Program-made: the position numbers and the translations under genes
Assembly (NCBI GenBank): GCA_019454045.1
Contig: SKCR01017766.1
Location: forward strand, 38,735-102,734
Direction of reading: 5' to 3'
Length of the DNA: 64,000 bases
Source: Zanthoxylum bungeanum
Lineage: Eukaryota > Streptophyta > Magnoliopsida > Sapindales > Rutaceae
The notes under the pieces: generated by a model
What the model was told of the DNA's origin: nothing
What the model saw: the letters and a program-made list of their open reading frames with translations, nothing else
The model's database searches: none
In this document: piece after piece, positions 4,949 through 59,535 of the stretch
Layout: each line of letters opens with the position of its first letter
Numbering within the stretch: the first letter of the stretch is position 1

Positions 4949-4949
4949 A

Positions 4950-4961
4950 TGGTATCAGAGC
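4950..4961 (+). other. C1 primer binding site (initiator tRNA-Met type)
   Basis: TGGTATCAGAGC starts one base after the LTR end. It is the standard plant copia sequence complementary to the 3' end of initiator tRNA-Met and primes minus-strand DNA synthesis. Confidence 0.95.
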
Positions 4962-10830: not shown

Positions 10831-10875
10831 CCCGTACATAGTTCAGGTGTAGGACACTTGAGTGATTGGCTATAG

Positions 10876-10889
10876 GCCAAGTGGGAGAT
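10876..10889 (+). other. C1 polypurine tract
   Basis: GCCAAGTGGGAGAT directly precedes the 3' LTR. This is the usual plant copia plus-strand primer; the equivalent sits before the C2 and C4 3' ends. Confidence 0.85.
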
Positions 10890-24377: not shown

Positions 24378-24378
24378 A

Positions 24379-24391
24379 TGGCATCAAGAGC
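24379..24391 (+). other. C2 primer binding site, mutated
   Basis: TGGCATCAAGAGC, clearly derived from TGGTATCAGAGC by one substitution and one inserted A. Complementarity to initiator tRNA-Met is reduced, so this copy would prime poorly. Confidence 0.8.
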
Positions 24392-30000: not shown

Positions 30001-30070
30001 TTCGTTTGGATCATACATCGTGGCGATGTGATGATCGACTAAATCGCGTCAGACGATAATCATGCAAATC
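27051..30070 (+). pseudogene. C2 gag-pol (highly degenerate)
   Basis: Collinear with C1 7561-10830 but more damaged. The Gag zinc knuckle region lies at about 27250-27300 (ANCGKRDRGS in one frame, with the CCHC spacing broken). Integrase remnants are near 27800-28340, the hinge near 28800-28950, and RT remnants at about 29100-29350 (IWIMLAYAACFIYEIWQLE, VNRSMFGLKQT). RNase H remnants follow at 29560-30060. No open frame exceeds about 90 codons. It shares specific inactivating changes with C1. Confidence 0.8.
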
Positions 30071-30150
30071 CGCTGATGAAAGTTCTTTATCAGCAATTTG
30101 AGCCAACCGTACATAGTTCGGGTGTTAAACATTTGAGTGACTGACTATAG

Positions 30151-30164
30151 GCCAAGTGGGAGAT
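30151..30164 (+). other. C2 polypurine tract
   Basis: GCCAAGTGGGAGAT immediately before the 3' LTR, identical to the C1 tract. Confidence 0.85.
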
Positions 30165-32222
30165 TGTTGGACAATTATGACCCATAGCATCACTATTTGT
30201 ACAGATCACGGTGTTGTTGTACAAATTAACTATGTGACAAAGGAGATTGCACTATTATCATTTGTGATTAGATCACCTCGATATATAAATGATGAGAGGT
30301 CCTTATGATTTGTTCCTGGATTGAGAATGATATGAGACAGTATCAATCCATAAAGGATAAATCATTAAACGTCCCTAGTCAGAGCATTATCGAGATTGGA
30401 CATCGATGAATGTGTAAAAGACTAGTATTACAATTGTGCGTGTTGTGAGGGCACAACGGCATAGTTCTCATATATTTGGGTATAGGATACTCATGCAAGT
30501 GTAATATGAGGTTGTGTTTCACCGATGGTACGGGAAACAGCTTCGCTCTGGATAGACCCCCTCAGAATTCCATTGGTAGTATGACTACGTGTCTATGGAA
30601 GTCCGAAATCAGGGTAGGTGTATTTGGTCTTAACCTGAGACTTGCACCGCTAATGCATACGACAATCAATATACTTTGGTTGAGGTCGTCCATGGCTTTA
30701 ACCGGTTCCTGTGTACGCCAATTCTGGGTATATCGAGAATCGTAGTGTGTTGGGTGTGATGTCAAGATGGAAGTTTCACTCCAGTCATATGGAGTTGATG
30801 ATCGTGCAGGGATACAGAACTGGCTCTCTATATAAGGTTGCAACCGTCGGGATAATATGACTTGGTCATGATTATCCGATTTTAAAGAGACTAGTTGCTC
30901 GTTATCCGATATATGCATCGTACGGGGCAGACACTGTACCAGCCCCAGGCCTTGCATGTGATCATCTGACACTGGACAGAAATACGCAGTACTACGGTAT
31001 ACTACGCTTGATATAGATCCTTATGCCTGTAAGGATATTTCCGGAGAATTGGGTAGGCATGGCGCTTTGCTAGAGGCCAACATTGTCTTGTAAATCGGTA
31101 TAAACGTAATACGAGGTACTTACGTGTTCGGATAGTCCGACGACCGAATTTATTGCCAACATATCCGGGGATCTCATGGGTCGCTTCCCAAAGATTCACC
31201 GATGACGTATAACTCGCACTCTTAATTAATCTGGGATTAATTAGATGAGAGAGAAAATTAATCTGGGATTAATTGCGGAGATATTTTATCTAGGATAAAA
31301 TATCATTTAAAGAGAGAGAACGATTAATTTGGAATTAATCAGTAAATTGATATATTTGATATATTAAATGAAATTAGATTTCAACGCGGAATTAAAATTA
31401 GATTTTAATTCGGGCGAACGAATTAATTTAGAATTAATTCGTTAGCGACGTGAATAGTGACTTCGCTAGGCGTAATCATTTAATTACGTCGCAACGGAAA
31501 GTTCGTTAATTTGGAATTAGCGAACCCGAGCCCGAGATTATTTGCGAGCGCATTCGCATTTCGAATTCGAGTGCGGAAAATCAAATCAAGCGTCAAATCG
31601 CTAGTCGCAACTAGCGTCACATCATTCGTCAATCAAGTGATGGATGTCTTTCACTTTGAGTGATTGACGCAAGTCATTATTCACTGATTGATGGAAGTTG
31701 ATGTGAGTTGAGTGATGTGTGTGGTTGGCATTTTTGGGCATTAATTGCCTTGACTTTTGGAACCAAATTTGTGTATTTGATTTTAGAAATCAAATACCAA
31801 AAACACTTAACACATTTTTCATCATCTCTCCTCTCTTTTCCTCTTCTCTCCTCACGTTTTTTCTTCTTGATAAGGCATTAAACTGCCGAGTTTGATGAAG
31901 AAAAAAAGGAAGCAAGAGTTGGATTTTGTGGCAAAAATCGCAAGCGCTAGCACACTACGAGATATGCGAAGGTGATAGGGAAGTTCACCCATGAGCCGGG
32001 AATCGTTCGACGAGGCTTGGAGCTTCATTTCTCAGCTCAAAATCTGAAAATGGTGGAGCAAGGGACTGCACTGTTTTGGCGTGAACAAGAGGAGCAAAAT
32101 CAATTTTGTTTGTTGCTGATTCGTCTCAACCGATCGATGTGAGTATTCCGCTACCTCCATTGATGTATTCACATGTTATTTTCATGCTTATATGATCTTG
32201 GGACCTAAATTAGAAACCAACA
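30165..32222 (+). repeat. C2 3' LTR
   Basis: 2058 bp, begins TGTTGGACAATT and ends CCAACA. Followed by the TSD ATGCT and then minus-strand C3 coding sequence. Confidence 0.95.
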
Positions 32223-32227
32223 ATGCT
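32223..32227. repeat. C2 target-site duplication, right copy (ATGCT)
   Basis: Matches 22354-22358 exactly. Confidence 0.95.
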
Positions 32228-34638: not shown

Positions 34639-34782
34639 GTTGCTAAAAGTTGTTAAGAACTAAAAAAAGAGGGTTTACATTTGAAGTAATTTTTGGTGAT
34701 GAATCCCGATTTTAAGTTAAAAAATACAAAATTATTCAATTCAGAATAATTTTTCATTTCAAATCTGTAATCGAGACTAAAA
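34639..34782. other. Short intergenic flank left of G2
   Basis: AT-rich sequence upstream of the MMP fragment start. Nothing else recognised. Confidence 0.5.
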
Positions 34783-34787
34783 CAGAA
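34783..34787. repeat. G2 target-site duplication, left copy (CAGAA)
   Basis: CAGAA flanks the 5' LTR; the identical copy is 59536-59540. Confidence 0.95.
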
Positions 34788-35527
34788 TGTTGATGGTGTT
34801 TTCAGGCACTATAACATTTAAGACAGCACGACGATGACATAAGGGTAATTCCCTGACTGGTTGAGATCATATAGCCGAACCGACCATAACATGTGAAGAC
34901 CGACCACTTTGGTTCGGATGACCGAGCACTATAAGGTCGGCAGAAACACTCTCAGCATAAAAGATTGTCATGACCGACCTCATGAAGACCGACCAGACAG
35001 TGAGTCGTGTTCAAGGTGACGACACCCTATTCTTGCGGATAAGGTAAAACGGATTATCCTACTCTCACAAGGAAATGAAGTCAGAATCCGAGAAGGAATA
35101 AGAAAAGAGAAGAGAATCGGACTAGGAACCCTTACAATGAAAGAAAACTAAAGATCAACTAGGATTTCTTGTGCAAATAGGAGTCTGATTTCTGTGTTAT
35201 TATAAATAGGAGGGCATAGTATGTGTAAAAGGGATCATCATCAAAAAATTAGTGATCAGAATCATCAAGCTCTGATTTGTAAAAGCACAAAAAGATCTGA
35301 GAAACGTATTGAAGTAATAAAAAGTAGCATCCTGTTTCTGCCCGTGGACGTAGGTCGGACCAAGATCCGCCGAACCACGTTAAATCTCTTTGTCGATTGG
35401 TGTGTTTATCTGTCTCTCGCTAAATTTGCTTTTGGTCCCCCATAACCAAACAAATTCACTATTGAAGGAGGATTTTCTCGGAGGTAAAATTCTCGTATTA
35501 CCCTGAGACCAAAATCCACCGTCAACA
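34788..35527 (+). repeat. G2 5' LTR
   Basis: 740 bp, TGTTGATGG...GTCAACA. TATA box TATAAATAG at 35201-35209 implies a transcription start near 35235. Confidence 0.97.
35201..35209 (+). promoter_or_regulatory. TATA box of G2 LTR
   Basis: TATAAATAG, conserved in the 3' LTR near 59211. Confidence 0.75.
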
Positions 35528-37059: not shown

Positions 37060-39250
37060 AACGGGTATCTAAACAAATACATTGACCACGAGGTCATGAC
37101 AGCCAGACAAAGAGCACGTGGTCGCCAAATCAATATCATCGCAGAAGGAAGAACACTGGCCGAAAACTCTAACCGGTCATGGAAAGATTACAGCAGAACC
37201 CGAGGACCAGATGTCTTAGAAACAAAGCAGGTCACAGGGCTACAGGGAGGCCGATCGGTACCAATAATGTTCACTGATGAGGATACCCGAGGAGTAAGTT
37301 TCCCTCATGACGATGCATTGATAATCAAGGCAGTCATCAGCGGGTCAGAGGTAGACAGAATCCTAGTGGACCCCGGGAGCGCGGTTGACATAATTTCCAG
37401 AGAAGCACTGGACGACCTAGGGGTAGAATATGCAACCCTGACCAACGATAGCACTCCCTTATACGGTTTCGGAGGATCAGCCGTCATCCCACTAGGAAGA
37501 ATACAGTTGGCAATAACTGTCGGGACACATCCTCGGACCCGGACGATCATGACAGACTTCACTGTAGTAGACTGCATGAGCAGTTACCAGGCCATCGTCG
37601 GGCGACCCTTCATGATGAAAATAAAAGCCGTGATGTCCTGCTACCACCTGAAACTGAAATTCCCCACTCGGGAGGGGATTGGAATTGTGTGCGGAAGCCA
37701 GAAAACAGCTCGCAGCTGCTTCGCAACTCTCTTACAAGAAACTATTTGCATCACAGAAGACAACCGAAAACGACAAAGGAACCAGGGAGAAGAAGAAGAA
37801 GACAGAAGCCCAGGCGCCTGGCCAAACAAAAATGCCCGACTCGCTGCAGCTGAGGAAACCGAGGAGATAGAACTTTACGGGACAGGAAAAAGTATAAAGA
37901 TAGGGGGAGGCCTGAGCGAGTCCATACGACAAGATCTTCTAGAATGCCTGAAGGGATACCCGGACGTCTTTGCCTGGGGATACAATGACATGCCGGGGAT
38001 CGACCCGAAATTCATCAATCACCGCCTAGCAGTAGACTCATCTCGCAAGCCGGTCAGGCAAAAGAGAATGAACTTCAATCAAGAGAGGAGTAAAGTAATG
38101 GCAGCCGAGGTCGAGAAGCTACTAAAGGCGGGTCTCATCAGGGAAGCAAGGTACCCGGATTGGGTATCAAACGTGGTATTGGTCAGGAAGAACAATGGCA
38201 AGTGGCGAATGTGTGTCGATTTCACCGACTTAAACAAGGCGTGCCCAAAGGACAGCTTTCCTTTGCCAAACATAGATCAGCTAGTAGACACCACAGCCTG
38301 TCAAGGCTTACTGAGCTTCATGGATGCTTTCTCCGGATACAACCAGGTCAAAATGTGCCCGGCAGACGAAGAGAAGACAACCTTCATCACAGATCAGGGG
38401 CTTTACTGCTATAAAGTGATGCCCTTCGGGCTAAAAAACGCTGGGGCAACTTTCCAAAAGTTGGTAAACAAAGTTTTCAAACCACTCATCGGCATTACAA
38501 TGCTGGTTTATGTCGATGACATGATAACAATGTCAAAAGAACCAAACAACCACATGGACGACCTAAAAAGGACCTTCGAGCTTCTAAGAAAACACAACCT
38601 GAAGCTCAATCCGGAAAAATGTACCTTCGGGGTAGCTTCAGGGAAGTTTTTAGGCTACATGGTAAGTGCCCGAGGAATTGAAGCAAACCCACAGAAGATC
38701 CAGGCAATACTGGCCCTAAAATCTCCCAAAACAGTAAAAGAAGTACAGAGTCTGACCGGTAGAGTGGCCGCGCTCAACCGGTTCATATCACGAGCAACTG
38801 ACAAATGCCACCATTTCTTCAAAGTAATCCAAAAAGCAAAAAAGGATGTCGACTGGACGATAGAGTGCGAAGAAGCCTTCCAGCAGTTGAAACAGTATCT
38901 GGTGCAGCCCCCACTCCTGGCTAAACCACTCCCAGGTGAAACATTATACCTATATCTGGCTGTTTCAGACCGAGCAGTGAGTTCAGTACTGATACAGGAA
39001 ACCGACAAGATCCATAAGCCTGTCTACTATATCAGCAAAGCCCTCTTAGACGCTGAAACCCGGTATCCAGTACACGAACTAGTCGCCCTTTCACTAGTTA
39101 CGGCAGCTCGAAAATTACGGCCTTACTTCCAGGCCCATCCTATCCGGGTATACACAGGCCACCCCCTAAAACAAATTCTGCAGCGGCCAGAGGTTTCCGG
39201 CAGATTAGTAAAGTGGTCGGTAGAACTAAGTGAACATGACATCGCCTATC
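37060..39250 (+). pseudogene. G2 protease, reverse transcriptase and RNase H (5' part of pol)
   Basis: One long open frame (37096-39250) directly follows gag. The protease active site is VDPGSAVDII (usual VDxGSS). The RT has NNGKWRMCVDFTDLNKACPK, FMDAFSGYNQVKM, and the catalytic YVDDM at 38509-38523. RNase H has LYLAVSDRAVSSVLIQE, PVYYISKALL and VKWSVELSEHDIAY. The frame is cut by C4 at 39250 and resumes at 48490 with LPRAAVKGQALADFVAE. Before the C4 insertion this part would have been nearly intact. Confidence 0.95.
39246..39250. repeat. C4 target-site duplication, left copy (CTATC)
   Basis: CTATC immediately precedes TGTAGGGG. An identical CTATC follows the right end of C4 at 48485-48489, and removing one copy restores the G2 RNase H frame. 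Confidence 0.95.
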
Positions 39251-39722
39251 TGTAGGGGTTATTTAGGGGGTGAATCCGGTAACGCAGCGGAAGCGGTGAA
39301 AATCCGATTTTCAGATTTCAAAACTTTTTCTCGGATTAATTAAATAAACTTATTTATTTAATATTCCCAATAGTCAAATTAGGCACCAAATGGTGCTCTC
39401 GGCTTTGTGAGGAATAATGGGGATTTTGGTTGCTTTGGTGTTTTGATGTTTTGAACATCATAAGTTCATCCTAGAAATGATTTAGAATCATTCAAAATTG
39501 ATTGGATCAATTTCGGACTAAAACGGGCAAAAAACCAAAGCAATGGTATTTCGGTAAATTCACTTAAAATTGTTTTATTGAATTTATTTTCATAATTTGA
39601 TTATTGGAATATTAAATAAATAAGTTTATTTAATTAATCCGAGAAAAAGTTTTGAAATCTGAAAATCGAATTTTCACCGCTTCCGCTGCGTTACCGGATT
39701 CACCCCCTAAATAACCCCTACA
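39251..39722 (+). repeat. C4 5' terminal hairpin (472 bp, in place of 5' LTR)
   Basis: Outer arms 39251-39381 and 39593-39722 are inverted copies of each other (about 130 bp, about 97% identical by eye), separated by 211 bp. Inside the spacer is a further short inverted match (TTGCTTTGGTGTTTTG near 39451 against CAAAAAACCAAAGCAA near 39528). The right end CCCCTACA is three bases from the PBS. Confidence 0.95.
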
Positions 39723-39725
39723 AAA

Positions 39726-39737
39726 TGGTATCAGAGC
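39726..39737 (+). other. C4 primer binding site (initiator tRNA-Met type)
   Basis: TGGTATCAGAGC, perfect copia consensus. Confidence 0.95.
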
Positions 39738-40482
39738 GAGTCTGATTCTAGGCCACCTATAATGATTAGCCTTCATTGAATCAATGTTTAATCATGTTTT
39801 CTTGACTTTGTGCATGCTTATTAGGATCTAAACTGGTTAGATTTAGGGTGTATGACACTTAGCGGAAAATCCCTAATAATAAGGTTTAAATGTAATTATG
39901 TAATTGATGCATGTTATATGGTCCGTCTTGTCAATACGGTTTATGAATATCTCTTTGTGACTACATCTGAGATCGTGCCTCTGCTGTGAGGATGTAGCCG
40001 ATAAAGATTTATTTATACCGGATGTATATCAGATACTAGATAAATTCAAGCGAAAGCGGAATTCTGAACGTGCCCTAGCTGTCAGGATTACGTAAGTAAC
40101 TTGAGTTTATCATTGGCGAGTTTAACTTTGGTACGTCTCCTTGTGGGCCTGCCTTCGCAGCGACAACGAGAAACGGCCAGGACCGGTACTTAGGAGTCAT
40201 TAGTGAATGATTGACAAATGAGTTGTCTACCTGATGAATATACGTAGGCGAGACCGTGCCTCTGCTGTGAGCCGAAATATATTCACGGGATCCACTTTTC
40301 ACTATTAGAATTTAATTTAATTATTAAATATTTGTATTCTGTTTTGGGATTACAGTATTGCATGATTTAGTGGGAGGGGCATATTAGATTAAAAATCCAT
40401 GATCTAGTTTATGCTTATGATATTATATGAAACTGCTTAATTTCTGCTAACCGTTTTTCGTGATCTATATGATAGATTGGCG
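39738..40482 (+). other. C4 untranslated leader
   Basis: About 0.75 kb without a supported frame. The phrase CGTGCCTCTGCTGTGAG occurs twice, at about 39974 and 40255, giving a diverged direct repeat about 280 bp apart. Confidence 0.65.
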
Positions 40483-43400
40483 ATGGCGGGACAATCCACA
40501 ATTCAGTTTACGCGTATGCTTGATGCGAACAAACTAAAAGGCGCTGAGAACTTTGCAGACTGGGAATTGGATTTGAGGATTGTCCTCGATTCCGAAAAGC
40601 TGGGTTATGTTCTTGAGGGTCCGTTGCCCCTTGCAGTGGGTGCGGATGCTTCGGAGGAGGAACGCCAAGTTTTTGAAACTTGGAAGGATGATGATTTAAG
40701 GGTTAAATCATACATCCTTAGTTCACTGTCTCCGAAACTCAAGCAACAGTATTATGGTATGTTAGATTCCTATAGTATGATGACGCGATTAAGACAATCG
40801 TTTGAGAACCAGGAACAAGTTATTGTTCACAAAGTCGCCATGGAACTGTTCCATGCGCGTCTGGATGAGGGGCAGAGTGTCAGCCCACATGTTCTTCAGA
40901 TGATCGATTTGATCGATCAATTGAGGCAACATAATCTCATCTTGAATGACATTCTTGGTAGGAGTGTCATTCTTGGTTCACTGCCAGCTTCATTTCGCCA
41001 GTTCGTGATGTACTTCAACATGCACGGGACTGTCTGTATCTACCAGGAGCTACATAGGATGTTGCTCACGGCAGAAGAGGACCTTAAGAAGCGAGTACCG
41101 ACTAGCCCTCCTAGAACTACTTCTCTTTCGGCTTCTTCCCAAGGATGGTCCAAGGGAAAGAATAAGAAAGGCAAGAAGAAGAAGAAGGCTTTTGGTCCTC
41201 AACAACAGACGAAGATTGCAAAGCCCAAAAGGGCTTCTGAAGACAAATGCCACCACTGCAGCAAAGTTGGGCACTGGAAAAGGAACTGTCCTGATTACAT
41301 TGCCCAAGTGAGGAGAGACAGAGCTTCTACATCAGGTACTTTAATTTTTCCAGTTATTGATTTATCTTTGGCTTGTGAAGCCGTTACATCCAGCTGGATT
41401 TTAGATTCTGCTTGTCCCATTCACATTTGCAATTCGTTGCAGGTGCTGGAGGAAAGTAGGAAACTGAAGCCTGGAGAGATGCAGTTGCGATTCGGGAGTG
41501 GAGACTCTTTGGATGCAGTTGCAGTGGGAGTATGCGAGATCTCATTACCGAATGGGACACTTTTGTTATATGACTGTCATTTTGTACCGGGATGTGTCGC
41601 TAATATTATATCACTTTTTGTATTAGATACAGAAGGCTATTGTATTAATATTAAGAATAGTTCTTTGTATTTATATGATAAAAATAATATTCAGATCCTT
41701 AATTGTCCAAACCAGCATGGTCATTATACATTGCAAACTTCAAAAGATATATTAAGTACTGGAGTTAATAAACGTAGTTTACCTGTAATAAATAATACTG
41801 AACTTTGGCATATGAGACTTGGTCACATTGGCGTTAAACGCCTTACCCAATTGGTTAGGAATGGTTTGATATCAGATCTTACCATTGAATCCTATCCAAC
41901 TTGTGAATCCTGTATTCAGGGTAAGATGACCAAAGCCCCATTTTCTGGTGTTGGACACCGTGCCACTAACTTACTGGAACTCGTACATTCTGATGTATGT
42001 GGTCCACTAAGTCAAACTGCTCACAGTGGTTATTCGTACTTCGTTACCTTTATCGATGATTTATCACGGTAATGTTATGTGTATTTGATGCAACATAAAT
42101 CGGAAACCTTTGAAAAGTTCAAAGAGTTCCGAAATGAAGTAGAAAAACAAACTGGTAAATATATTAAATGCCTTCGATCAGATCGAGGCGGTGAATATAT
42201 GAGTGGTGAGTTCATGGATTATATGAAGGAGAATGGGATTCTCGCTCAATATACTCCTCCAGGTACACCACAGCACAATGGTGTATCTGAAAAGAGAAAT
42301 CGGACTTTATTGGATATGGTCCGATCGATGTTGAGTTTCACAGATTTGCCCTATTACTTATGGGGCTACTGTCACTTAACAGCCGCACATCTTTTGAATA
42401 AGATTCCTTCAAAGGCTGTTCCTACGACACCGTATCAGATATGGTTCGGTAAGAGACCAAATCTTAATTATATTAAGGTTTGGGGTTGTCCTGCCTATGT
42501 CAGGGTAACTCAGCAAAGTAAGCTTTCGCCTCGAGGGCAAAAGTTTAGGTTTGTTGGATATCCCTCGAACACGAGGGGATATCTGTTCTATGATACCGAG
42601 CATCGAAATGTGTTCGTAGCTCGCTTCGCAAAATTTCTAGAAGTAGAATTTTTGTCAGAAGGTGGTGATCATAGACAGGTTGAGCTTGATGAAGTCCAAC
42701 CTGAAAACAACGAACCAACGGAGGAACCTGAAGTTCAAGTAGATGAAGGACCTTCAACACACACACTCCGTAGGTCGGAAAGGGTATCTAGACCTCCTGA
42801 ACACTTGTATTTGATACAAGAAAAGAGTCTGGATGTTCTCTTAGTTGAAGAGACAGATCCTTTTTACCTATAGAGAATCGATGTTGGACATCGACTCCGT
42901 GAAATGGCAAAGTGCCATGAAATCCGAGATAGACTCAATGCATGAAAATCAAGTTTGGGACTTGATTCCGCTTCCCGAAGGAATTGTTCCTATCGGTTGT
43001 AAATGGGTTTACAAGAGGAAGCGCGGGCCTGACGGTAAGGTTGAAACTTACAAGGCCCGACTGGTAGCAAAAGGTTACACGCAGCGACCTGGCTTCGACT
43101 ACGATGAAACTTTTTCCCCGGTAGCAATGCTTAAGTCTATCCGGATTTTGCTTTCTATAGCTGCGTATCATGACTACGAGATTTGGCAAATGGATGTCAA
43201 AACGGCTTTTCTAAATGGATTTCTTGATGAAGAAATCTATATGGAACAGCCGGAAGGTTTCACATCCAGCGAAACCTCGGGTATGGTATGTAAGCTTAAG
43301 AAGTCCATTTATGGACTTAAACAAGCTTCACGAAGTTGGAATCTTCGATTCGATGAGATTATTAGATCGTCTGGTTTTCTCAAGAATTCGGAAGAATCCT

Positions 43401-44427
43401 GTGTGTATCAGAAGGCCAGTGGGAGCATGGTCGTATTTTTAGTCCTATATGTTGATGACATCCTAATCATTGGGAATGATTTAGGAATGTTGCAAAGCGT
43501 CAAAGCGTACCTCTGTAAGAATTTCTCATGAGGACCTGGGAGAAGCTTCCTATGTTTTAGGGATAAAACTCTATAGAGATAGACAAAGGAGGCTGATTGG
43601 GTTATCCTAATCAACGTACATAGATAAGATCTTGGAACGGTATAGCTTTGGTAACTGTAAGACAGCAAACATACCGTTCAGACATGGGATTCATCATTCT
43701 AAGAAGATGTGTCCACAAACAGAAGATGAGAAGGTTAGAATGTCTAACCAACCTTATGCTTCATTTTGGGTAGCATAATGTATGCCATGTTATGTACGAG
43801 GCCTGATATCAGTTTCGCTGTTAGCGTAACTAGTCGATATCAGTCCAATCCAGGTAATGACCATTGGATGGCCATTAAACATATCCTAAAGTATCTTAAG
43901 GTACTAAGGATAAGTTAATAATATATGGAGGAAACGAACTGCAGGTTAATGGGTATACAGACTCCGATTTCCAATCAGATCCCGATGATAGAAAGTCTAC
44001 ATCTGGATTTGTCTTTACCCTTAACGGAGGTGCAGTTTGTTGGAAGAGTTCCAAACAGGGATCGACAGCTGATTCCACCACTAAGGCGGAATATATTGCA
44101 GCTTCTGAAGCTGCAAAAGAGGCTGTGTGGATAAAGAACTTTATCACAGAATTGGGAGTTGTCCCAAGTATCGAGAATGCGATTCCGTTATACTGTGATA
44201 ATACTGGAGCCATTGCGCAAGCAAAGGAACCGAGGGCGGATCAGAAGTCGAAGCATGTGGAACGTAAGTACCACATCATTCGAGAGATCGTGTCGCGAGG
44301 GGATATTGTCGTGTGCAAGGTACCGAGTGAAGATAATGTAGCAGACCCGCTGACGAAGGCCATACCTCCGAAGTTGTTTGATAAAACGTGGAGTCCATGG
44401 GTATTAGATACAATCGATTGGCACTAG
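40483..44427 (+). pseudogene. C4 gag-pol polyprotein, recently inactivated
   Basis: The first ATG is 40483 (MAGQSTIQFTRMLDANKLKG). Gag runs to the CCHC knuckle CHHCSKVGHWKRNC at 41248-41289. Protease has WILDSACPIH (D-S-A instead of D-S-G). GAG-pre-integrase (LWHMRLGHIGVKRL, CESCIQGK) and integrase (HSDVCGPL, SDRGGEY, GVSEKRNRTLLD) follow. RT is at about 42890-43531 (WQMDVKTAFLNGFLDEEIYM, YVDDILIIGND) and RNase H ends with ERKYHIIREIVSRGDIVV and ADPLTKA at 44427. Damage is light: an in-frame TAA at 42070-42072 in integrase, a one-base T-run change near 42862, and several frame breaks between 43531 and 43930. Otherwise it is full length (about 1300 codons). Confidence 0.93.
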
Positions 44428-44429
44428 AG

Positions 44430-44443
44430 CAAGTGGGAGATTT
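44430..44443 (+). other. C4 polypurine tract
   Basis: CAAGTGGGAGATTT directly before TGTTGGGG; the same tract type as C1 and C2. Confidence 0.85.
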
Positions 44444-47400
44444 TGTTGGGGTTGGTGCTCAGAGCGCCAATTCCCGGTTGTATTTCTGTTAAATACTTCT
44501 GTAAAACATTATTATTATGAATAATATATGCAGTTTCTATAATATAATCTATATTTCTATATGGTAAAGACGTAATGACCCGAGAATGATTAGTCATGAT
44601 ACAGTTGCAAAAGCGTCGCAACGGACATTGAGAAGTATCATGACGTTGTCATTCTCAGACAGTTCCTGGTCAAGGTTTACACTACTTGGTCAGTATAGTA
44701 AACCCGTTGAGACCGGTACATGTCGTATACTGGAATATATGATTCCAATGGTTTCTCAATGAACCATTAGTCTTGGAGACTAGTATAGACGTGTAGGTGT
44801 TTAGCGGATAAACACTGAACGACTCACCGAAGATTCTTAATGGATGGTACACCAGCGTCAATAAGAATCTTCTTGGGTTGAGTAGCACTTGTGATTCTTA
44901 GACTTGAGATGCCATTGTGGGCACATGAGACATCTTCTACATTAGACGGCAGTCACGTCACCGATCTATTTAGATCAGACCTCCGCCTGTTCGTTGGGTG
45001 TAGATAGATCCTCAGGGTGTCCCATGTGTATCAAGATAGGATCCGTCAGTTCTGTGTACCAGAGCATAGGTAGTCCATATGATTAGCAATCAGATAAAAC
45101 CATGGGCCCGTGGTAAAGTTTAGAAGCTAGTTCTAAACATTCTTTTTGAGATTGCTAATAGAATAGTCGACTGGATAATCCCGATAGAGATTTGACGTTT
45201 ACATCTATATCTCTGGGATTTATCCGGATACATGTGACGGAGGAATTATACATTTGCCATGACCTCGACCTGTATGGTTCAGCGAGATTATTCGTGATCG
45301 TCATAATCTACGGGTGGATAGATTATGGACACGAAATTAGATTTTGTGACGGATATGCCTGAACCTAGAGAGTCTCAATAATGAAACATACTCGTTGAGC
45401 ACTAGAGCAACATAAATAAATAATATTGATATTATTAAAGTCGTTTAATGGTTAAACGCAAGATACATGCTAAAGAGACTAGATAGTCATTTCCTTAATT
45501 ATTGTGTATTTACATTTAATACTTGATTAATTTAAATACACATTAATTAATAGTCAAAATGAGTTATTTGACTTATTTCCTAAATGAATATATGTTTTTA
45601 ATATTTAATGTAAATATTATACATATATTTAATATATTTGTATTTGATTAATTAATTAATTATTTAATTGTTAAATGATTAAATTAATTAAAATATAAAT
45701 ATCTTACATTAGGATATTTAAAGTAAATGACATTAGTTGCATTTGTTGACCAAAATAAATATCTAATAAAGTAGTTTATAAGATATTTGTGCAAGTTGAA
45801 TAATGATAATTGAAATGAAATTGAAATTACAATTTCTTGCATTTGGTATATGCAATTCGGCAAGGCATATTTTTGCCTTAATATAAATTGTTTTCATTTT
45901 CATTTCATTAAGTTAACCTAATACACTTTACAAGAAACACCATTAAAGAAAACAAAGAAAGCAAGTGAAGGAGAAAAGGAAAAACTTAAAGAAAAGCTGG
46001 ATTTTGTAAGTTTTTCAAACTTACTATTAGAAAGGAATTTGTTCCTTAGGATCTAGGCAACATCTTGTGATGTTCTTAAGTTATTATTTTCATTATTTCT
46101 TGTGTTTTTGATGATGGAAATTTGGTTGAAAGTGTTGAGCATGTGTAATGAAGAAATGTTGTAACTATTGTAGTTATAAACATTCTTTTAAGGTTTTTGA
46201 AACCATGTTGCTAATCTAGAGTTATTGACCCACTCTTAAATGACCTAGATTTGATCTTGAGTTGTTCATTGTGTTGAGACTTGGATTGGATGGAAGAATG
46301 ATGATTGAAGTAATTGATTTAATGTATTTGGTCTAATTTGTCCAATTTGAGGAAATTGAAAAATTAGGGTTTTTAACCTATTCCAAATTGGGGGTTTTCA
46401 TATATGTTGAGCATTTGGGTGTGTATATGATGCATGCAAAGTTTCATGTTGAACTTATTTATACACACCAAAATGCTCAACATGAAACTTTGCATGCATC
46501 ATATACACACCAAAATGCTCAACATATATGAAAACCCCCAAATTTGGAATAGGTTAAAAACCCTAATTTTTCAATTTCCTAAATTGGACAAATTAGACCA
46601 AATACATTAAATCAATTACTTCAATCATCATTCTTCCATCCAATCCAAGTCTCAACACAATGAAACAACTCAAGATCAAATCTAGGTCTTTAAGAGTGGG
46701 TCAATAACTCTAGATTAGCAACATGGTTTCAAAAACCTTAAAAGAATGTTTATAACTACAATAGTTACAACATTTCTCATTACACATGCTCAACACTTTC
46801 AACCAAATTTCCATCATCAAAAACACAAGAAATAATGAAAATAATCACTTAAGAACATCACAAGATGTTGCCTAGATCCTAAGGAACAAATTCCTTTCTA
46901 ATAGTAAGTTTGAAAACTTACAAAATCCAAGCTTTTCTTTAAGTTTTCCTTTTCTCCTTCACTTGCTTTCTTTGTTTTCTTTAATGGTGTTTCTTGTAAA
47001 GTGTATTAGGTTAACTTAATGAAATGAAAATGAAAACAATTTTATTAAGGCAAAAATATGCTTGGCCGAAATTGCATATACCAAATGCAAGAAATTGTAA
47101 TTTCAATTTCATTTCAATTATCATTATATCAACTTGCACAAATATCTTATAAACTACTTTATTAGATATTTATTTTGGTCAACAAATGCAACTAATGTCA
47201 TTTACTTTAAATATCCTAATGTAAGATATTTATATTTTAATTAATTTAATCATTTAACAATTAAATAATTAATTAATTAATCAAATACAAATATATTAAA
47301 TATATGTATAATATTTACATTAAATATTAAAAACATATATTCATTTAGGAAATAAGTCAAATAACTCATTTTGACTATTAATTAATGTGTATTTAAATTA

Positions 47401-48484
47401 ATCAAGTATTAAATGTAAATACACAATAATTAAGGAAATGACTATCTAGTCTCTTTAGCATGTATCTTGCGTTTAACCATTAAACGACTTTATAAATAAT
47501 CAATATTATTTATTTATGTTGCTCTAGTGCTCAACGAGTATGTTCATTATTGAGACTCTCTAGGTTCAGGCATATCCGTCACAAAATCTAATTTCGTGTC
47601 CATAATCTATCCACCCGTAGATTATGACGATCACGATAATCTCGCTGAACCATACAGGTCGAGGTCATGGCAAATGTATAATTCCTCCGTCACATGTATC
47701 CGGATAAATCCCAGAGATATAGATGTAAAGTCAAATCTCTATCGGGATTATCCAGTCGACTATTCTATTAGCAATCTCAAAAAGAATGTTTAGAACTAGC
47801 TTCTAAACTTTACCACGGGCCCATGGTTTTATCTGATTGCTAATCATATGGACTACCTATGCTCTGGTACACAGAACTGACGGATCCTATCTTGATACAC
47901 ATAGGACACCCTGAGGATCTATCTACACCCAACGAACAGGCGGAGGTCTGATCTAAATAGATCGGTGACGTGACTGCCGTCTAATGTAGAAGATGTCTCA
48001 TGTGCCCACAATGGCATCTCAAGTCTAAGAATCACAAGTGCTACTCAACCCAAGAAGATTCTTATTGACGCTGGTGTACCATCCATTAAGAATCTTCGGT
48101 GAGTCGTTCAGTGTTTATCCGCTATAAACACCTACACGTCTATACTAGTCTCCAAGACTAATGGTTCATTGAGAAACCATGGGAATCATATATTCCAGTA
48201 TACGACATGTACCGGTCTCAACGGGTTTACTATACTGACCAAGTAGTGTAAACCTTGACCAGGAACTGTCTGAGAATGACAACGTCATGATACTTCTCAA
48301 TGTCCGTTGCGACGCTTTTGCAACTGTATCATGACTAATCATTCTCGGGTCATTACGTCTTTACCATATAGAAATATAGATTATATTATAGAAACTGCAT
48401 ATATTATTCATAATAATAATGTTTTACAGAAGTATTTAACAGAAATACAACCGGGAATTGGCGCTCTGAGCACCAACCCCAACA
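44444..48484 (+). repeat. C4 3' terminal 4-kb palindrome (in place of 3' LTR)
   Basis: Left arm 44444-46452 (2009 bp) and right arm 46477-48484 (2008 bp) are reverse complements with only scattered differences, about 98-99% identical in the parts compared by eye. A 24-bp centre (46453-46476) separates them. It begins TGTTGGGGTTGGTGCTC and ends GAGCACCAACCCCAACA. No coding sequence is supported in it. Confidence 0.96.
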
Positions 48485-48489
48485 CTATC
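48485..48489. repeat. C4 target-site duplication, right copy (CTATC)
   Basis: Matches 39246-39250; G2 coding sequence resumes immediately. Confidence 0.95.
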
Positions 48490-50294: not shown

Positions 50295-50667
50295 ACTTTC
50301 CCTTCCTCCTATCTGTTTACAGCAAAAAGGACAGGGATCCAAATACATAAAGCCTCTCTCAGAATAACCCACAGAGAGTTGTAAGAAGGGCAGTATGTCC
50401 CCGAGCATGAAAAAAAAAAAACTTTTCTTTTTTCCAAGCACTCTCAAATAAAAACCATATTAAAAAAAAAAAAAAAACTCGGGGACATGCTCACGACAAC
50501 GATCCAAAACTGAAAAAACCCAAAATTCGCAACCATCCGACCACGGATACCACCACAAAAATGCACAGTCACACCAGAATCATCCGACTCCATACAAAAA
50601 AAAAGGGGCACAGAGAGCATAGATCTTTGAGAAGCACAACATAAGGAGGAACATACCCTTAATGTTT
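50295..50667 (+). other. G2 spacer after integrase
   Basis: No gene. It contains two poly(A) runs (about 50411-50422 and 50462-50476) around CTCGGGGACATG-like sequence, leading into the tandem array. Confidence 0.6.
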
Positions 50668-51060
50668 CATTAATCGGCTCGGGGCTGGATTACGTTCCGC
50701 CGAGGCCTCTTCATTAGTCGGCTCGGGGCTGGATTACGTTCCGCCGAGGCCTCTTCATTAGTCGGCTCGGGGTTGGATTACGTTCCGCCGAGGCCTCTTC
50801 ATTAGTCGGCTCGGGGCTGGATTACGTTCCGCCGAGGCCTCTTCATTAGTCGGCTCGGGGTTGGATTACGTTCCGCCGAGGCCTCTTCATTAGTCGGCTC
50901 GGGGCTGGATTACGTTCCGCCGAGGCCTCTTCATTAGTCGGCTCGGGGCTGGATTACGTTCCGCCGAGGCCTCTTCATTAGTCGGCTCGGGGTTGGATTT
51001 CGTTCCGCCGAGGCCTCTTCATTAGTCAGCTCGGGGCTGGATTACGTTCCACCGAGTCAA
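50668..51060 (+). repeat. 44-bp tandem array A in G2 3' region
   Basis: Nine units with an exact 44-bp period (starts 50668, 50712, 50756 and so on to 51020). The core is CGGCTCGGGGYTGGATTACG then TTCCGCCGAGGCC. Units are almost identical (C/T at one position); the last one is diverged and passes into an 86-bp type unit. Each unit can pair GGCTCGG with CCGAGGCC. Confidence 0.95.
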
Positions 51061-51132
51061 TACTCATTGGACTGGGGACGGGATATTCCCCCAGAACCAA
51101 GTATCTCTCTTGGCTCGGGTCCTCAGGGACAT

Positions 51133-51429
51133 ACTCGATGCATAGGATCCATGAGAAGCATAGCACGGGGAGGGATGATACCCCTGTGGCGATTGCATAC
51201 TCCAGTGTTACCGAACATGAGGAGGAACATGCCCTTAATGTGTCGAACACCCCATATTTGATCCTCACGTACCCGATGTAATGGATCCGTGGGAAAGCAT
51301 AGCACGGGGGATAATGATGCCCCCGTGACGATTGCTAGCTCCAGTGTTACCGGGCCTAAGGAGGAATATGCCTTTGGTATCCCGGACACTCTTTGATCCA
51401 TTCATCATCCGGATCCGCGAGAGACACAG
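51133..51429 (+). repeat. 140-bp tandem repeat in G2 3' region, interrupted by the solo LTR
   Basis: Two full units of about 140 bp with AGCATAGCACGGGG at 51156 and 51296. A third unit is cut by the solo LTR, and its remainder starts with GCACGGGGATGCGTTATGCC at 54501. Confidence 0.85.
51425..51429. repeat. Solo LTR target-site duplication, left copy (CACAG)
   Basis: CACAG at 51425-51429 and again at 54497-54501. Confidence 0.9.
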
Positions 51430-54400
51430 TGTAGGCACTGCATTTTTATTAACTTGATTTTTTGCATGTGAAACCCGATGATGAGTCTCATTTGGAGGCA
51501 CTACCTTTTGAGTCACGAAAGCCGCGGGAAACGGATATCGGAAGGGGAAATTCAGGATAAACAAGCTCACTGTCTTCGTTAGTGTTGCGTTCGTTATTTC
51601 GTTCGAACGGTAAACAGATTTCGGGCGTTCGTGTCACGTTCGAGGAAGCGTTCGGACGGTGTCGGTAATTCTGGTTTTGCTGCTAGCCTCACACCCCAGC
51701 CCATTTAGCTCCCCAAAGCCCATAAAACACATCCCAAATTAAATAAATAAATATTAATTTAATCATTAAACATTAAATAAAATATTTAAAACATTTACCA
51801 AACTTAAACTAAAATCATGCCTAATTTAAATATTTTGAATATATTATATACCTAAATTAAAAAGATGATATACCTAATTAAAATCAATCATAACAAATTA
51901 AAAATATTGACTTCCTAATCTAACAAATTAAATGCCTAATCCTAACCAATCAAATATATTGTATTCCTAATCTAGCCAAGACATGTCCCCCAATCAAATC
52001 CATTGCTTTCCTTACCTAGCACTAAGTCATATCCTTATTGAATGCACCAAATCCCTTCCTTGTGAGACAAGGTGAACCCCTAACCCTTCTCTATATAAAC
52101 AACCCCTAACCAAAGCCATTCTTCTCCTTCAGACAACCTAAGTCACGCCCAAGCCCTAGAAACACACCAAGACTCACGGCCAAAGCAAGAAATCAAAACA
52201 TAATATTTTCTCTCCATCTCATCCCCTTTAGCGTGAACCCCATCTCCCTTGCACCCCCTCCATAGCCGAATTTCTGTAGCCAACACATCCCCCCATACAG
52301 CCCTTACAACCACTAAAACACCCCCTAACAAACACTCAAAAACAGCCCCTGAATTACCTTAAAACAGCAGCCCAAATCCTTAAAAAACAGTAACATAAAA
52401 ACTGCATAGATAATCTTAAAAATAATAACATACAACTGCACTAAGAACCTACACAAACTTGGAATAGTTCATTGAAAACGTTAAAACAGGTGGCCCGTGC
52501 AGTGAGCAGCAAGACAGAGACCGAATAGGAGCAGAACGGAGTTCGAACCACAAGCAAAACAGCAAAGCAGTGAGCTAGGACGCTGAACCAGTGAACCAGA
52601 AAAGTTGCGGAGCTTTACCCCTTCCGATCTTCGTGAAACGCGAGTCCGAGAGACGGCTTAGAAGGTTAGACCTGAGGGTACTTTTCACACCCATCTCTAC
52701 GTGATTTTGTTGTTGTTTATTTTGGATTATATATTTTACTTATTCGTTGAATTCTGTTTATGTATGATGTGTGTTGTGGGTATGGGATGAATGAGAAATG
52801 TGTTAACTCTCGCGGTATATCGGATGGAAACCCGGACATAAATTTCATAGCCGATTCCGAATGGACGGTAATATGATCTGTACTCGGGACACAACTCCAC
52901 GTACCGCTTGAGTAAACGGCACTATCTTTTGCCTTGTGTTGCTTTGGTTTGTTTATTTTTCGTCACTTGAATGCTGTATGTTGTTTATTTATGCATGATT
53001 CAATCAAGCGCATGGGCTTAGTGAGTTAGTCCAAAGGTCCTCTATTTGAGAGACGAAGAGCCGAAAAGGCCACCTTTGTGACACTACTTCGCCGCGCCGG
53101 TTGATGTGTGTTCGGTTGGATGCGAGATACGTTCAATCGGGCATACTTAGTTTGATATTATTGATTTTATCTTTTATGCATGGTTCAATCAAGCGCATGG
53201 GCTTAGTAAGTGGAATGAAAAATCCCTTATGGGGAGGGGTTAAAACCCTTTACCACGATGCTTTGCCGCGCCGGTTGATGTGTGTTCGGATTGGATGTAA
53301 GATGTGTTCAATCGGGCATACTTGGTTTTGATATGATTGGCTCTATTTTTGTATGTGTGATGTGATGCGCATGGGCTTAGTATGTTGGTCTAAAGGTCCT
53401 CTCTTTGAGAGACCAAGAGCCCCCAAAAGGCCACCTTTACGGCAGTACTTCGCCGCGCCCATTTATTTTGTTGTTTATGTATTGCGTCCCATTTCATGCA
53501 TCAGGTCTGTTCCCGTTCGAACGCGTTTACGAACGCAACTCGAACGTGCATACATTTTGCCTTATCATGCATCAGGTCTCATTTCTGTTCGAACGTGTTA
53601 ACAAACGCCATACGAACGTGAGCATTCTGTTTCATTTCCGTTCGAACGCGTTAACAAACGCTATACGAACGTGAGCATTCTGTTTCATTTCCGTTCGAAC
53701 GCGTTTACGAACGCTACACGAACGCGAACACACTGAACTGAGACATATTCATCACATGCCACGCATAATTGTTTCTTAGGTGATTTTTATGGAACCACAC
53801 ATAGTCATTCTTATCTTTGTGCACATAATAATGAAAAGCATGTTTATTCCATTAGTTGCGTCGTTTGCCTTAGTCTTGATTTAACGCATTTCGATTCATA
53901 TGCTTATGCCATGATGACTTTGGAGTATTATTTCTTGTGATATATCGGATGGAAACCCAGACATAAATTCCGTAGCCGATTCCGAATGGACGGTAATGCG
54001 GTCTGTACTTGGGATACAATTCTACGTATCACTTGGAAGAGTGCTCACGAGTATGCTTGTGCGGATATTATGTATGCTTGTGTTTTCATGAATATGATAT
54101 GCTGAATGAAGTTGTATGTTCATTGTTACTTTGAGGTATTTTGTTAGACATGTGTTATTAGATATGAGATATATGCGAAATGTATGTATGAGTGTTATTT
54201 TGTACCCATGAATATAGAAGCATGATATTTTTAGGAAAAAATGTTACTTAAGCCTGATTAAATTATTATGTAAATCCTTTCATTACAAATGGCATAAGTA
54301 AGGGACCATTCCAAACCCAACGGTTTGAGGTCTTCCCTTGCGAGGGGTGAGTGCGGCCTTAAATCTCATTTTCCCGGTTCACACCGGGTGGCGACTCCAT

Positions 54401-54496
54401 TACTCTCCGGTTTAGTCCCACGTGGCTACTTCGTACTCCCAACTAGGCCGCGAGCCTAGGACAACATGCGTCGCCCAGATTTTCTGTGTTCCCACA
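51430..54496 (+). mobile_element. Solo LTR of the G1 (Ogre-like) family
   Basis: 3067 bp, begins TGTAGGCACTGC and ends TTCCCACA, flanked by CACAG duplications. Its start matches the G1 LTR start on the opposite strand (GATGATGAGYCTC and TTTGGAGGCA in both). Its end matches the other G1 LTR end (GAGTGCGGCCTTAAATC, GGCGACTCCATT, CTACTTCGTACTCCC). Internal modules: three copies of a block of about 180 bp with CGCATGGGCTTAGT (53010, 53195, 53370), two copies of a block with CCGATTCCGAATGGACGG (52852, 53973), and five TTCGAACG modules. No internal element sequence is present, so it is the product of LTR-LTR recombination. Confidence 0.93.
53500..53740. repeat. TTCGAACG subrepeats in the solo LTR
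   Basis: Four units (53512, 53588, 53639, 53691) of about 52-75 bp with GTTCGAACGYGTT and a following ACGAACGTGAGCATTCTG. They are the counterpart of the array in the G1 LTR but with fewer copies; one further unit lies at 51597. Confidence 0.85.
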
Positions 54497-54902
54497 CACA
54501 GCACGGGGATGCGTTATGCCCCTGTGGCGTGTGCCTGCTCCAGCGTGGTAAGGAGGAGCCCTCATACAATACACAGGCTCCCCAGTGAACCGACGTGTAG
54601 AGGATGTGCCCTTACCATTCAAACGCTCTTCTGATCCGAATCCTGGTTCGCCGGGACACTGAATTGAAAGATTCAGAATTGTGTTTTGGAGACCTCGGGC
54701 AGGACGCTGCTTTGAGACATCCATGTTGTTATTTTTTTGCAAAAGACGTTTTTTATTTTTGGGATAGGTGCTAAGTCACCCCCGCCTTTCATTTTCCAGA
54801 AACTTGTTTTCGTTTTCCGCCGGTCTGGTAGGGGGACGCCCGTGCCAGATTCGGTAAGGCTTCGAAGGTTGATTCATTTCCCTTCAGTGGAAGTCCCAGG
54901 GG
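54497..54902 (+). other. G2 3' region between solo LTR and array C
   Basis: Remainder of the third 140-bp unit (to about 54650), then unique sequence without a supported gene. Confidence 0.6.
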
Positions 54903-55126
54903 TTAGTCGGCTCGGGGCCGAATTTTGTTCCGCCGAGGCCATTTGATTAATCGGCTCGGGGCTGGATTTCGTTCCGCCGAGGCCACTTGGTTATTCAGCT
55001 CGGGGCCGGATTTTGTTCCGCCGAGGCCATTTGATTAATCGGCTCGGGGCTGGATTTCGTTCCGCCGAGGCCATTTGATTAATCGGCTCAGGGCTGGATT
55101 TCGTTCCGCCGAGGCCACTTGGTTAT
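54903..55126 (+). repeat. 44-bp tandem array C in G2 3' region
   Basis: Five units of 44 bp with TCGGCTCGGGGCYGGATTTYG then TTCCGCCGAGGCCA. They are the same family as array A but have ATTTGATTAA or ACTTGGTTAT spacers. Confidence 0.92.
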
Positions 55127-55385
55127 TCAGCTCGGGGTCGGGTTACGTCCCACCGAGTCAAGCTCCTTTAGGTTTGGGGAGGTAACATTCCCCCAGAACC
55201 CAAGTCTTTCACTCAGCTCGGGGTCGGGTTACGTCCCACCGAGTCAAGCTCCTTTAGGTTTGGGGAGGTAACATTCCCCCAGAACCCAAGTCTTTCACTC
55301 AGCTCGGGGTCGGGGTACGTCCCACCGAGTCAGCTCTTTGGACTGGGGACATAACATTTCCCCGGGTCCAAGTGCCTCACTCAGC
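55127..55385 (+). repeat. 86-bp tandem array D in G2 3' region
   Basis: Three units of about 86 bp containing CAGCTCGGGGTCGGG, TACGTCCCACCGAGTCA and AACATTCCCCCAGAACCCAAG. The head of each unit is a variant of the 44-bp unit, so D looks like a higher-order derivative; one similar unit sits at 51020-51115. Confidence 0.9.
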
Positions 55386-55590
55386 TCGGGGTCAGGACAT
55401 GCCCCTCCGGCTCATATTGACCCCTGAAAGGGTCTCAAAGAGTTCGAAAAAACAGGAAGCATAGAGAAAAAGGAGAAAGAGATAAGGACACATGAAAATA
55501 TATATATATAGATGTGCATATACAGCTTAATGTTATTACAAAAAGTAAAGTATACACAGGGCCCCCGTCGGGTTACCCTTTCTCATTCAG
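55386..55590. other. G2 spacer between array D and antisense gene end
   Basis: No gene seen. A TATATATATAGATG simple repeat lies at about 55498-55512. Confidence 0.5.
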
Positions 55591-58406: not shown

Positions 58407-58794
58407 ATGACAAAGACACTCGTGACCGTTGGATCTAAAGAAGAACCCGATGAACGCCAGGTGTCAACTGCAAAAGAGGTCTCCCAAGTTTGAAACAGAC
58501 GGCTGAGATCAGCCCACTGTGGAAGACGCCTCTTCACGGTCGATTCACCCCCTTTTTGGCGGGAACCTGGCGGATGTTTGACAATGTCGAACTTAGAAAA
58601 AACCCTAAAATTGATTTGACAGGCATTTAAGCGGACGTGACTGTTGCGTGTCTCAAGACAAAGCGCTTGAAAAGAGGCAACAAAGCATTTCTCGACCCCG
58701 GACCGACCTCCAACGTAGCAAAAAGAAACACCATCTTTATGTAGTTCCCGGCACCAACTTGCACACTTGTTGGAACCGAGAACTAGGGGACAGA
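58407..58794. other. G2 region between antisense promoter and 3' LTR
   Basis: No gene supported; the open frames here look accidental. It ends in the purine-rich AACTAGGGGACAGA just before the LTR, the likely polypurine tract. Confidence 0.55.
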
Positions 58795-59535
58795 TGTTGA
58801 TGGTGTTTTCAGGCACTATAACATTTAAGACAGCACGACGAGGACAGAAAGGTAATTCCCTGACTGGTTGAGATCATATAGCCGAACCGACCATAACATG
58901 TGAAGACCGACCACTTTGGTTCGGATGACCGAGCACTATAAGGTCGGCAGAAACACTCTCAGCATAAAAGATTGTCATGACCGACCTCATGAAGACCGAC
59001 CAGACAGCGAGTCGTGTTCAAGATGACGACACCCTATTCTTGCGGATAAGGTAAAACAGATTATCCTACTCTCACAAGGAAATGAAGTCAGAATCCGAGA
59101 AGGAATAAGAAAAGAGAAGGGAGAATCGGACTAGGAATCCTTACAAGGAAAGAAAACTAAAGATCAACTAGGATTTCTTGTGCAAATAGGAGTCTGATTT
59201 CTGTGTGTTATTATAAATAGAGGGCATAGTATGTGTGTAAAAGGGATCATCATCACAAAATTAGTGATCAGAATCATCAAGCTCTGATTTGTAAAAGCAC
59301 AAAAAGATCAAAGAAAGTATTGAAGTAATAAAAAGTAGCATCCTGTTCTGCCCGTGGACGTAGGTCGGACCAAGATCCGCCGAACCACGTTAAATCTCTT
59401 GTCGATTGGTGTGTTTATCTGTCTCTCGCTAATTTGCTTTTGGTCCCCCATAACCAAACAAATTCACTATTAAATGAGGATTTTCTCGGAGGTAAAATTC
59501 CCGTATTACCCTGAGACCAAAATCCACCGTCAACA
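58795..59535 (+). repeat. G2 3' LTR
   Basis: 741 bp, TGTTGATGG...GTCAACA, about 97% identical to 34788-35527. Followed by the TSD CAGAA. Confidence 0.97.

What the first reader, a model, noticed from the sequence alone, without database searches (positions are those of the whole stretch)
39251..48484. Copia element whose LTRs have become two different palindromes, best explained by inversion of its entire interior
Seen directly: one unit with a perfect CTATC duplication and a clean repair of the interrupted G2 frame. Its left end is an inverted repeat of the U5-type end (TGTAGGGG...CCCCTACA) and its right end an inverted repeat of the U3-type end (TGTTGGGG...CCCCAACA). A normal element would carry the same LTR, TGTTGGGG...CCCCTACA, at both ends. 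The inner ends beside PBS and polypurine tract are normal; the outer ends are swapped and reversed. Inference: the element inserted in minus orientation, so its outer ends were TGTAGGGG and CCCCAACA. The segment from inside one LTR to inside the other then flipped, which produces exactly this arrangement. The two spacers (211 and 24 bp) should be equal under the simplest model, so loss of sequence at a breakpoint must be added. I know of no named class of elements with this structure.
Basis: partly seen in the sequence, partly recalled or inferred. Interest (0 to 1): 0.92.

Follow-up and report, generated by a model that had tools for sequence, protein, structure and literature searches.

The report
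Retrotransposon flipped inside its own ends
A Copia retrotransposon copy in a 4-billion-base, likely plant, genome still sits in its clean 5-base target duplication but has a different palindrome at each end, most likely because faulty DNA-break repair flipped its whole interior between its two long terminal repeats.

Summary
The 9,234-bp unit (39251-48484) sits in a CTATC duplication inside a Gypsy element; four fetched Gypsy copies show the empty site. Its left end is a U5 palindrome, its right end a 4-kb U3 palindrome. The host genome (3.96 Gb) could be searched. Of 44 other LTR places examined, 41 read colinearly (one LTR of about 2.4 kb holds every piece, including the left 'spacer'), one is scrambled and two are uninformative. 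Five of six siblings checked have two direct LTRs and perfect 5-bp duplications; the sixth partner was not reached. So palindromic ends are not the family's normal ends. The pieces fit inversion of the interior of a minus-oriented copy. The left joint lies on an 8-bp shared word (TCAAATTA). The right joint carries a 24-bp filler, 17 bp of it copied from next door. Both right arms stop at the same LTR base, which would explain the unequal spacers if a larger palindrome lost its centre symmetrically. Each junction occurs only here among the 40 places scored per search. I favour two LTR breaks repaired by microhomology-mediated joining (0.72). Rivals: strand switching during reverse transcription, circle capture by a solo LTR, assembly error. 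A one-off rearrangement, not a new class.

The parts
39246..39250 (.). Target-site duplication CTATC, left copy
   Evidence: Sequence; four Gypsy copies without the insertion have it once
39251..39381 (-). Left outer arm: U5 end of the LTR in reverse, L017 LTR positions 2281-2410
   Evidence: the host boundary at 39250/39251 is seen
39374..39381 (.). Left joint on the shared 8-bp word TCAAATTA
   Evidence: run length at random inverted joints
39382..39722 (+). Left inner LTR piece, L017 LTR positions 2069-2410, in direct orientation; includes the so-called spacer
39726..39737 (+). Primer binding site TGGTATCAGAGC (motif recalled)
   Evidence: Sequence; siblings have the same stretch directly after U5
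40483..44424 (+). Copia interior: gag, pre-integrase, integrase remnant, RVT_2; broken into several open frames
44431..44443 (+). Polypurine-type tract AAGTGGGAGATTT next to the U3 start (label recalled)
   Evidence: Sequence
44444..46452 (+). Right inner arm: LTR from the U3 start to L017 position 2014
46453..46476 (.). 24-bp filler at the palindrome centre; its last 17 bp plus TCAACAT repeat 46502-46525 exactly
   Evidence: (family D3); the centre as a whole is unique among 40 scored places
46477..48484 (-). Right outer arm: the same LTR stretch in reverse, ending at the U3 start
45882..45925 (+). Predicted promoter: TATAAAT and the invariant AACCTAATACA about 30 bases on, pointing to the palindrome centre
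   Evidence: AACCTAATACA in 19 of 19 rows; promoter role inferred
47002..47012 (-). Mirror copy of AACCTAATACA in the outer arm; its TATA stretch lacks one base in this assembly
48485..48489 (.). Target-site duplication CTATC, right copy

Best explanation
This is one Copia copy that was likely inserted as a normal element in the minus orientation and whose whole interior was then likely inverted in place by microhomology-mediated repair of two DNA breaks, one in each LTR. Shown: the outer ends are the two ends of one minus-oriented element, still in its CTATC duplication; the inner ends beside PBS and polypurine tract are those of the plus orientation; all four pieces come from one 2.4-kb LTR; the left joint sits on TCAAATTA, present at both parental sites; the right joint has a filler copied from 42 bases away. 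Inferred: the breaks fell in the 3' part of the LTRs, where siblings carry two small adjoining hairpins (TGACCAAATGGTCA, GCACCAAATGGTGC). The left joint cost little or nothing. The right joint would at first have been a palindrome with arms of about 2,068 and a spacer of about 212 bp, equal to the left spacer; its centre was then lost, about 54 bp from each arm plus the spacer, and refilled with 24 templated bases. The symmetric endpoint would point to processing of a hairpin or cruciform tip. One-step loss during the original repair is also possible.
For: Sibling LTRs colinear at 41 of 44 places; paired direct LTRs with 5-bp duplications in five of six. The two right arms are each other's nearest relatives: 8 mismatches between them, against 22-24 to the closest other LTRs found, L060 and L061, and 34-41 to L017 and L012, as expected of the two LTRs of one insertion. 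Eight-bp word at the left joint; runs of 6 or more arise at 0.3-0.4% of random inverted joints, 8 or more at about 0.05%. Exact 24-bp local copy at the right joint, absent from the 17 siblings aligned. Both right arms end at the same LTR base in 17 of 17 sibling alignments. Each junction found only here among 40 scored places. Fold-back synthesis at microhomologies giving short templated inverted insertions is documented in yeast (PMC11724301, abstract and Discussion read).
Against: No intact allele of this insertion was found: one search scored 40 of 1,970 candidates and only the window spans flank and element; the matching right-flank search did not complete. Nothing dates the flip relative to the insertion. 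Two breaks at nearly matching LTR positions is a coincidence that needs local fragility, itself an inference. The six siblings that show TCAAATTA were picked as best matches to the junction; other siblings differ there (L017 reads TCAATTTG). The other 7 filler bases have only a weak source: shuffles reach a match as long in 8%.
Confidence: 0.72

Rival explanations
1. The palindromes were made during reverse transcription: the growing minus strand switched inside the 5' LTR onto minus strong-stop DNA and the plus strand inside the 3' LTR onto plus strong-stop DNA, so that each new end ran to an exact LTR terminus, and the integrase then inserted this abnormal cDNA.
For: Strong-stop DNAs begin exactly at the U5 and U3 ends (recalled), so both outer termini and the 5-bp duplication follow without a chromosomal break; microhomology joints also suit a strand-switching polymerase.
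Against: It needs two separate switches in one cDNA, whose positions would be independent; yet the left inner piece starts only about 54 bases beyond where both right arms stop in a 2,410-bp LTR, which inversion requires and independent switches would give in roughly 2% of cases (my estimate).
Confidence: 0.1
2. The element had shrunk to a minus-oriented solo LTR; a one-LTR circle, or a copy of another element, was then captured in the reverse orientation at a break in that LTR.
For: The map is identical: an interrupted minus LTR around an LTR-interior-LTR piece opened near the same position. Re-insertion of extrachromosomal inverted DNA is mentioned as a published proposal in PMC11724301 (Discussion read).
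Against: Outer and inner LTR pieces are closer to each other (8 mismatches) than to any of the 21 other LTRs that I aligned to them over this stretch (best 22), so the captured copy would have to be this element's own interior or an unsampled very close relative; only 40 of 10,535 candidates were scored.
Confidence: 0.11
3. The arrangement is an assembly error.
For: The contig has many one-base indels at bases conserved in siblings, so it is probably a long-read assembly with residual errors; such palindromes are hard to assemble and reads were not available.
Against: LTRs are direct repeats, so repeat confusion within one element cannot flip its interior; a palindromic read artefact would copy one flank rather than keep two different flanks with one duplication; the joints carry repair-type microhomology and a templated filler.
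Confidence: 0.06

Closest known systems
Ty1/copia LTR retrotransposon (the family's own normal copies, e.g. L012, L016, L024, L029, L031)
   Same: Same LTR sequence, PBS and PPT sides, 5-bp target duplication, Copia RT and gag.
   Different: Normal copies carry the same LTR twice in direct orientation; this copy has two different palindromes and swapped outer ends.
Fold-back and templated inverted insertions at double-strand breaks (PMC11724301, yeast; abstract and Discussion read)
   Same: Inverted joints on microhomology and short locally templated fillers.
   Different: There mostly 5-34 bp; here a piece of more than 4.7 kb is inverted between two LTRs.
Mu killer of maize (PMC3440606; abstract and passages seen)
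   Same: A rearranged element with a long inverted duplication of its own family's sequence that could yield hairpin RNA.
   Different: Mu killer derives from a DNA transposon and silencing was shown genetically; here no expression or silencing is known.
DIRS-1 retrotransposons (PMC5633606; passages seen)
   Same: Termini in inverted rather than direct relation.
   Different: DIRS-1 has inverted LTRs as its normal state and a tyrosine recombinase; here each end is its own palindrome and the siblings are ordinary Copia.

Membership tests
Ty1/copia LTR retrotransposon | Copia-type proteins | tested here: met
   Retrotran_gag_2, gag_pre-integrs, Pol_BBD, SH3_retrovirus, RVT_2 above cut-off; rve_3 below its cut-off
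Ty1/copia LTR retrotransposon | Short target-site duplication | tested here: met
   CTATC, with the empty site in four of four copies fetched
Ty1/copia LTR retrotransposon | Two identical LTRs in direct orientation | tested here: not met
   Two palindromes instead; met in five of six siblings checked. So it is filed as a rearranged derivative of a Copia family, not as a regular member
DIRS-like retrotransposon | Inverted repeats shared between the two ends, and tyrosine recombinase | tested here: not met
   The two ends are different palindromes; no recombinase among the Pfam matches of the four interior ORFs scanned
Mu killer-like silencing locus | Long inverted duplication of family sequence | tested here: met
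   Arms of about 2,008 bp around a 24-bp centre
Mu killer-like silencing locus | Hairpin RNA, siRNAs and silencing in trans | not testable with these tools
   No RNA data; only predicted promoter signals
New structural class with palindromic ends | Many siblings with the same palindromic ends | tested here: not met
   Both centres only here among 40 scored places each; 41 of 44 other LTR places colinear. Scored places are a small part of 1,500-10,500 first-look candidates

The most novel reading that the evidence does not exclude
The flip has turned one retrotransposon copy into a self-made silencer of its own family: each arm of the 4-kb palindrome carries the LTR promoter pointing at the centre, so transcripts fold into hairpin RNA matching more than a thousand related LTRs, a Mu killer born from an LTR retrotransposon.
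Probability: 0.1. Interest if true: 0.8.

Novelty: new variant of a known kind. Interest (0 to 1): 0.5.

Why it matters
Known fates of an LTR retrotransposon are solo-LTR formation, truncation and nesting. This copy shows another: the interior can flip between the LTRs and leave a structure that annotation tools searching for direct LTR pairs (as LTRharvest does, PMC2253517, passages seen) would be expected to miss. The joints record how the repair went, and the result is a 4-kb near-perfect palindrome inside a family with many copies, a possible source of hairpin RNA and of further breakage. If such flips are found elsewhere, they give a dated natural record of end-joining in plants.

Tried and rejected
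Palindromic ends as the family's normal ends: rejected for the sampled copies. The left spacer as foreign DNA: rejected, it is LTR. A chance match of the first 7 filler bases to reverse U5 looked like a second template, but shuffles reach it in 8%, so I do not count it. Autointegration (an LTR end attacking its own DNA) was considered and set aside by reasoning: it would leave an LTR terminus joined inside the element, and both termini here are on the outside; no call tests this. Searches that found nothing: the LTR word in genome contigs and viral contigs, plasmids, the RT in viral contigs. Genome contigs gave three distant Copia-like RT loci in a cyanobacterial bin, of no use here. Literature: searches listed no paper that I recognised as describing an LTR retrotransposon with its interior inverted between its LTRs; I checked passages of PMC9055855, PMC3053390, PMC2603318 and PMC7251063 and they concern other inversions or none. 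The library is open-access only, so absence there is weak.
Full report
Where it lies. The window is part of contig C16683 of a 3.96-Gb assembly in 51,709 contigs. The 120 listed protein relatives of the first interior ORF (178 passed the cut-off) bear plant names wherever an organism is named, e.g. Hibiscus, Trifolium, Mikania, Tanacetum, so the host is likely a plant. The unit interrupts the RNase H region of a Gypsy element whose own LTRs are at 34782-35527 and 58790-59535, 96.5% identical. Uninterrupted Gypsy copies show the empty site: 32 of the 40 scored places match the left flank alone, 7 match only the U5 side, and only the window spans both; four of the 32 were fetched and read straight through a single CTATC with 137-140 of 141 bases identical.

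Anatomy. Reading left to right: CTATC; reverse U5 end (39251-39381); LTR in direct orientation to its U5 end (39382-39722); PBS; Copia interior in several open frames; polypurine-type tract; LTR from U3 start (44444-46452); 24-bp filler; the same LTR stretch in reverse to the U3 start (46477-48484); CTATC. PBS, PPT, U3 and U5 are labels by recalled motifs and position.

What a normal copy looks like. One search found 39 other LTR places (42 matches, less the window's two arms and one short extra match; 40 of 10,535 first-look candidates scored). I looked at 20 with about 4 kb on each side and at the 3' part of the other 19, and later at five more. Of these 44, 41 are colinear, U3 arm then about 50-60 bp then the left 'spacer' then the U5 end, all in one orientation; some have small deletions (L013, L021, L050, L051, L058). 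One, L014, is scrambled (below). Two are uninformative (L056 at a contig end, L057 without a U3 part). The 17 LTRs measured whole are 2,380-2,416 bp long (L013, L014 and L021 were left out of this set). For six copies I fetched the expected place of the partner LTR: five have it in direct orientation, with perfect 5-bp duplications AACGA, GAGGA, AATGC, ACAGT, CATAT and lengths of 8,634-9,546 bp; for the sixth (L030) the stretch fetched did not reach it.

Fit to inversion. In L017 coordinates (LTR of 2,410 bp) the left outer arm is 2281-2410 in reverse, the left inner piece 2069-2410, and both right arms are 1-2014. A minus-oriented element with one LTR cut at about 2068/2069 and the other at about 2280/2281, and its interior flipped, gives exactly these pieces, except that 2015-2280 is missing from one right arm and 2015-2068 from the other. 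The left joint reads AATAG-TCAAATTA-GGCACC. The parental sites read AATAA-TCAAATTA-TG (outer, six of six copies printed) and AATGG-TCAAATTA-GG (inner, six of six close copies fetched because they matched the junction best). Other copies differ at the inner site, e.g. TCAATTTG in L017 and TCAAATCA in L060. In random inverted joints within L017 a shared run of 6 or more occurs in 0.29% (0.44% in the 3' part) and of 8 or more in about 0.05%. The right joint has ACTTATT plus TATACACACCAAAATGC; the latter with the next TCAACAT is an exact copy of 46502-46525 and none of the 17 aligned siblings has it there.

Unequal spacers. The simplest inversion makes both spacers equal, here about 212 bp; the left one is 211. 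Both right arms stop at the same LTR base in all 17 sibling alignments. I therefore infer a second step, or a second half of the same step: the right palindrome, arms of about 2,068 bp around 212 bp, lost its centre symmetrically (about 54 bp of each arm) and was closed with templated filler. Symmetric loss would point to a hairpin or cruciform tip. This is inference; a one-step loss that happened to stop at the same base, favoured by the ATGTTGA repeat used by the filler, is not excluded.

One insertion, two LTRs. The right arms differ by 8 mismatches; the closest other LTRs found differ by 22-24 (L060, L061). So outer and inner pieces most likely descend from the two LTRs of one insertion. 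One-base gaps (17 columns) often hit bases conserved in all 17 siblings and fall on both arms alike (8 and 8), so assembly errors are likely and any date is rough; 8 mismatches in 2,001 bases would mean a few hundred thousand years at plant rates that I recall.

Not a class. With the right centre as query, only the window matches across both arms; the other scored places match one arm at a time (40 of 2,607 candidates scored). With the left junction, the other 39 matches cover only the inner side (40 of 1,501 scored). Exact-word searches for the junctions did not complete. These searches catch the same joints only; differently placed flips in the unscored copies are not excluded.

A hint of a fragile spot. 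L014 is a solo LTR with duplication GTATG whose 3' part is LTR 1 to about 1950, then reverse 2106-2039, then reverse 2406-2362, then direct 2382-2408 (L027 coordinates): an independent case of inverted joints, with a small U5 fold-back at its end. L061 has lost the stretch between the CCAAATGGT repeats of the two small hairpins. The stretch around LTR 2010-2110 may thus break often, but three cases are no test.

What it may do. TATAAAT (45882) and, about 30 bases on, AACCTAATACA, invariant in 19 of 19 rows, look like the LTR promoter and start. In the palindrome both arms would aim it at the centre; the predicted transcript would fold into a hairpin with a stem of roughly 0.5 kb. Against: the outer arm's TATA stretch lacks a base in this assembly, and no RNA was examined. 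Mu killer shows that such an inverted duplication can silence a family (PMC3440606, abstract and passages).

Verdict. It is a single rearranged copy of an ordinary family: a new variant of a known kind.

Noticed in passing
L014 3987-6075: Solo LTR of the same family with duplication GTATG whose 3' part holds two inverted LTR pieces and a U5 fold-back: an independent rearrangement at nearly the same LTR stretch.
   Followed up: partly
L061 2000-2120: Deletion between the CCAAATGGT repeats of two adjoining small hairpins (TGACCAAATGGTCA, GCACCAAATGGTGC), close to the window's break positions.
   Followed up: no
window 3027-12824 and 22358-32225: Two other Copia-like elements with long direct LTRs (about 95% and 97-98% identical), about 85% alike to each other; normal structure.
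   Followed up: no
window 50582-51192 and 54815-55393: Related 44-bp tandem repeats in two blocks inside the host Gypsy element.
   Followed up: no
window 17000-18780 and 52800-54467: Diverged inverted matches (about 77-87%) between two distant parts of the window.
   Followed up: no
L019 186-3962, L020 6394-7137, L026 6318-6725: Copies of this family lie directly against related elements in the opposite orientation, as if they often insert into one another.
   Followed up: no
L009, L010, L011: Contigs filed under a cyanobacterial (Trichormus) metagenome bin encode Copia-like reverse transcriptases (40-45% identity), probably eukaryotic contamination.
   Followed up: no
window 44444-48484: One-base indels at bases conserved in all 17 siblings occur evenly on both arms; residual long-read assembly errors are likely and would also affect reading frames in this contig.
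   Followed up: partly
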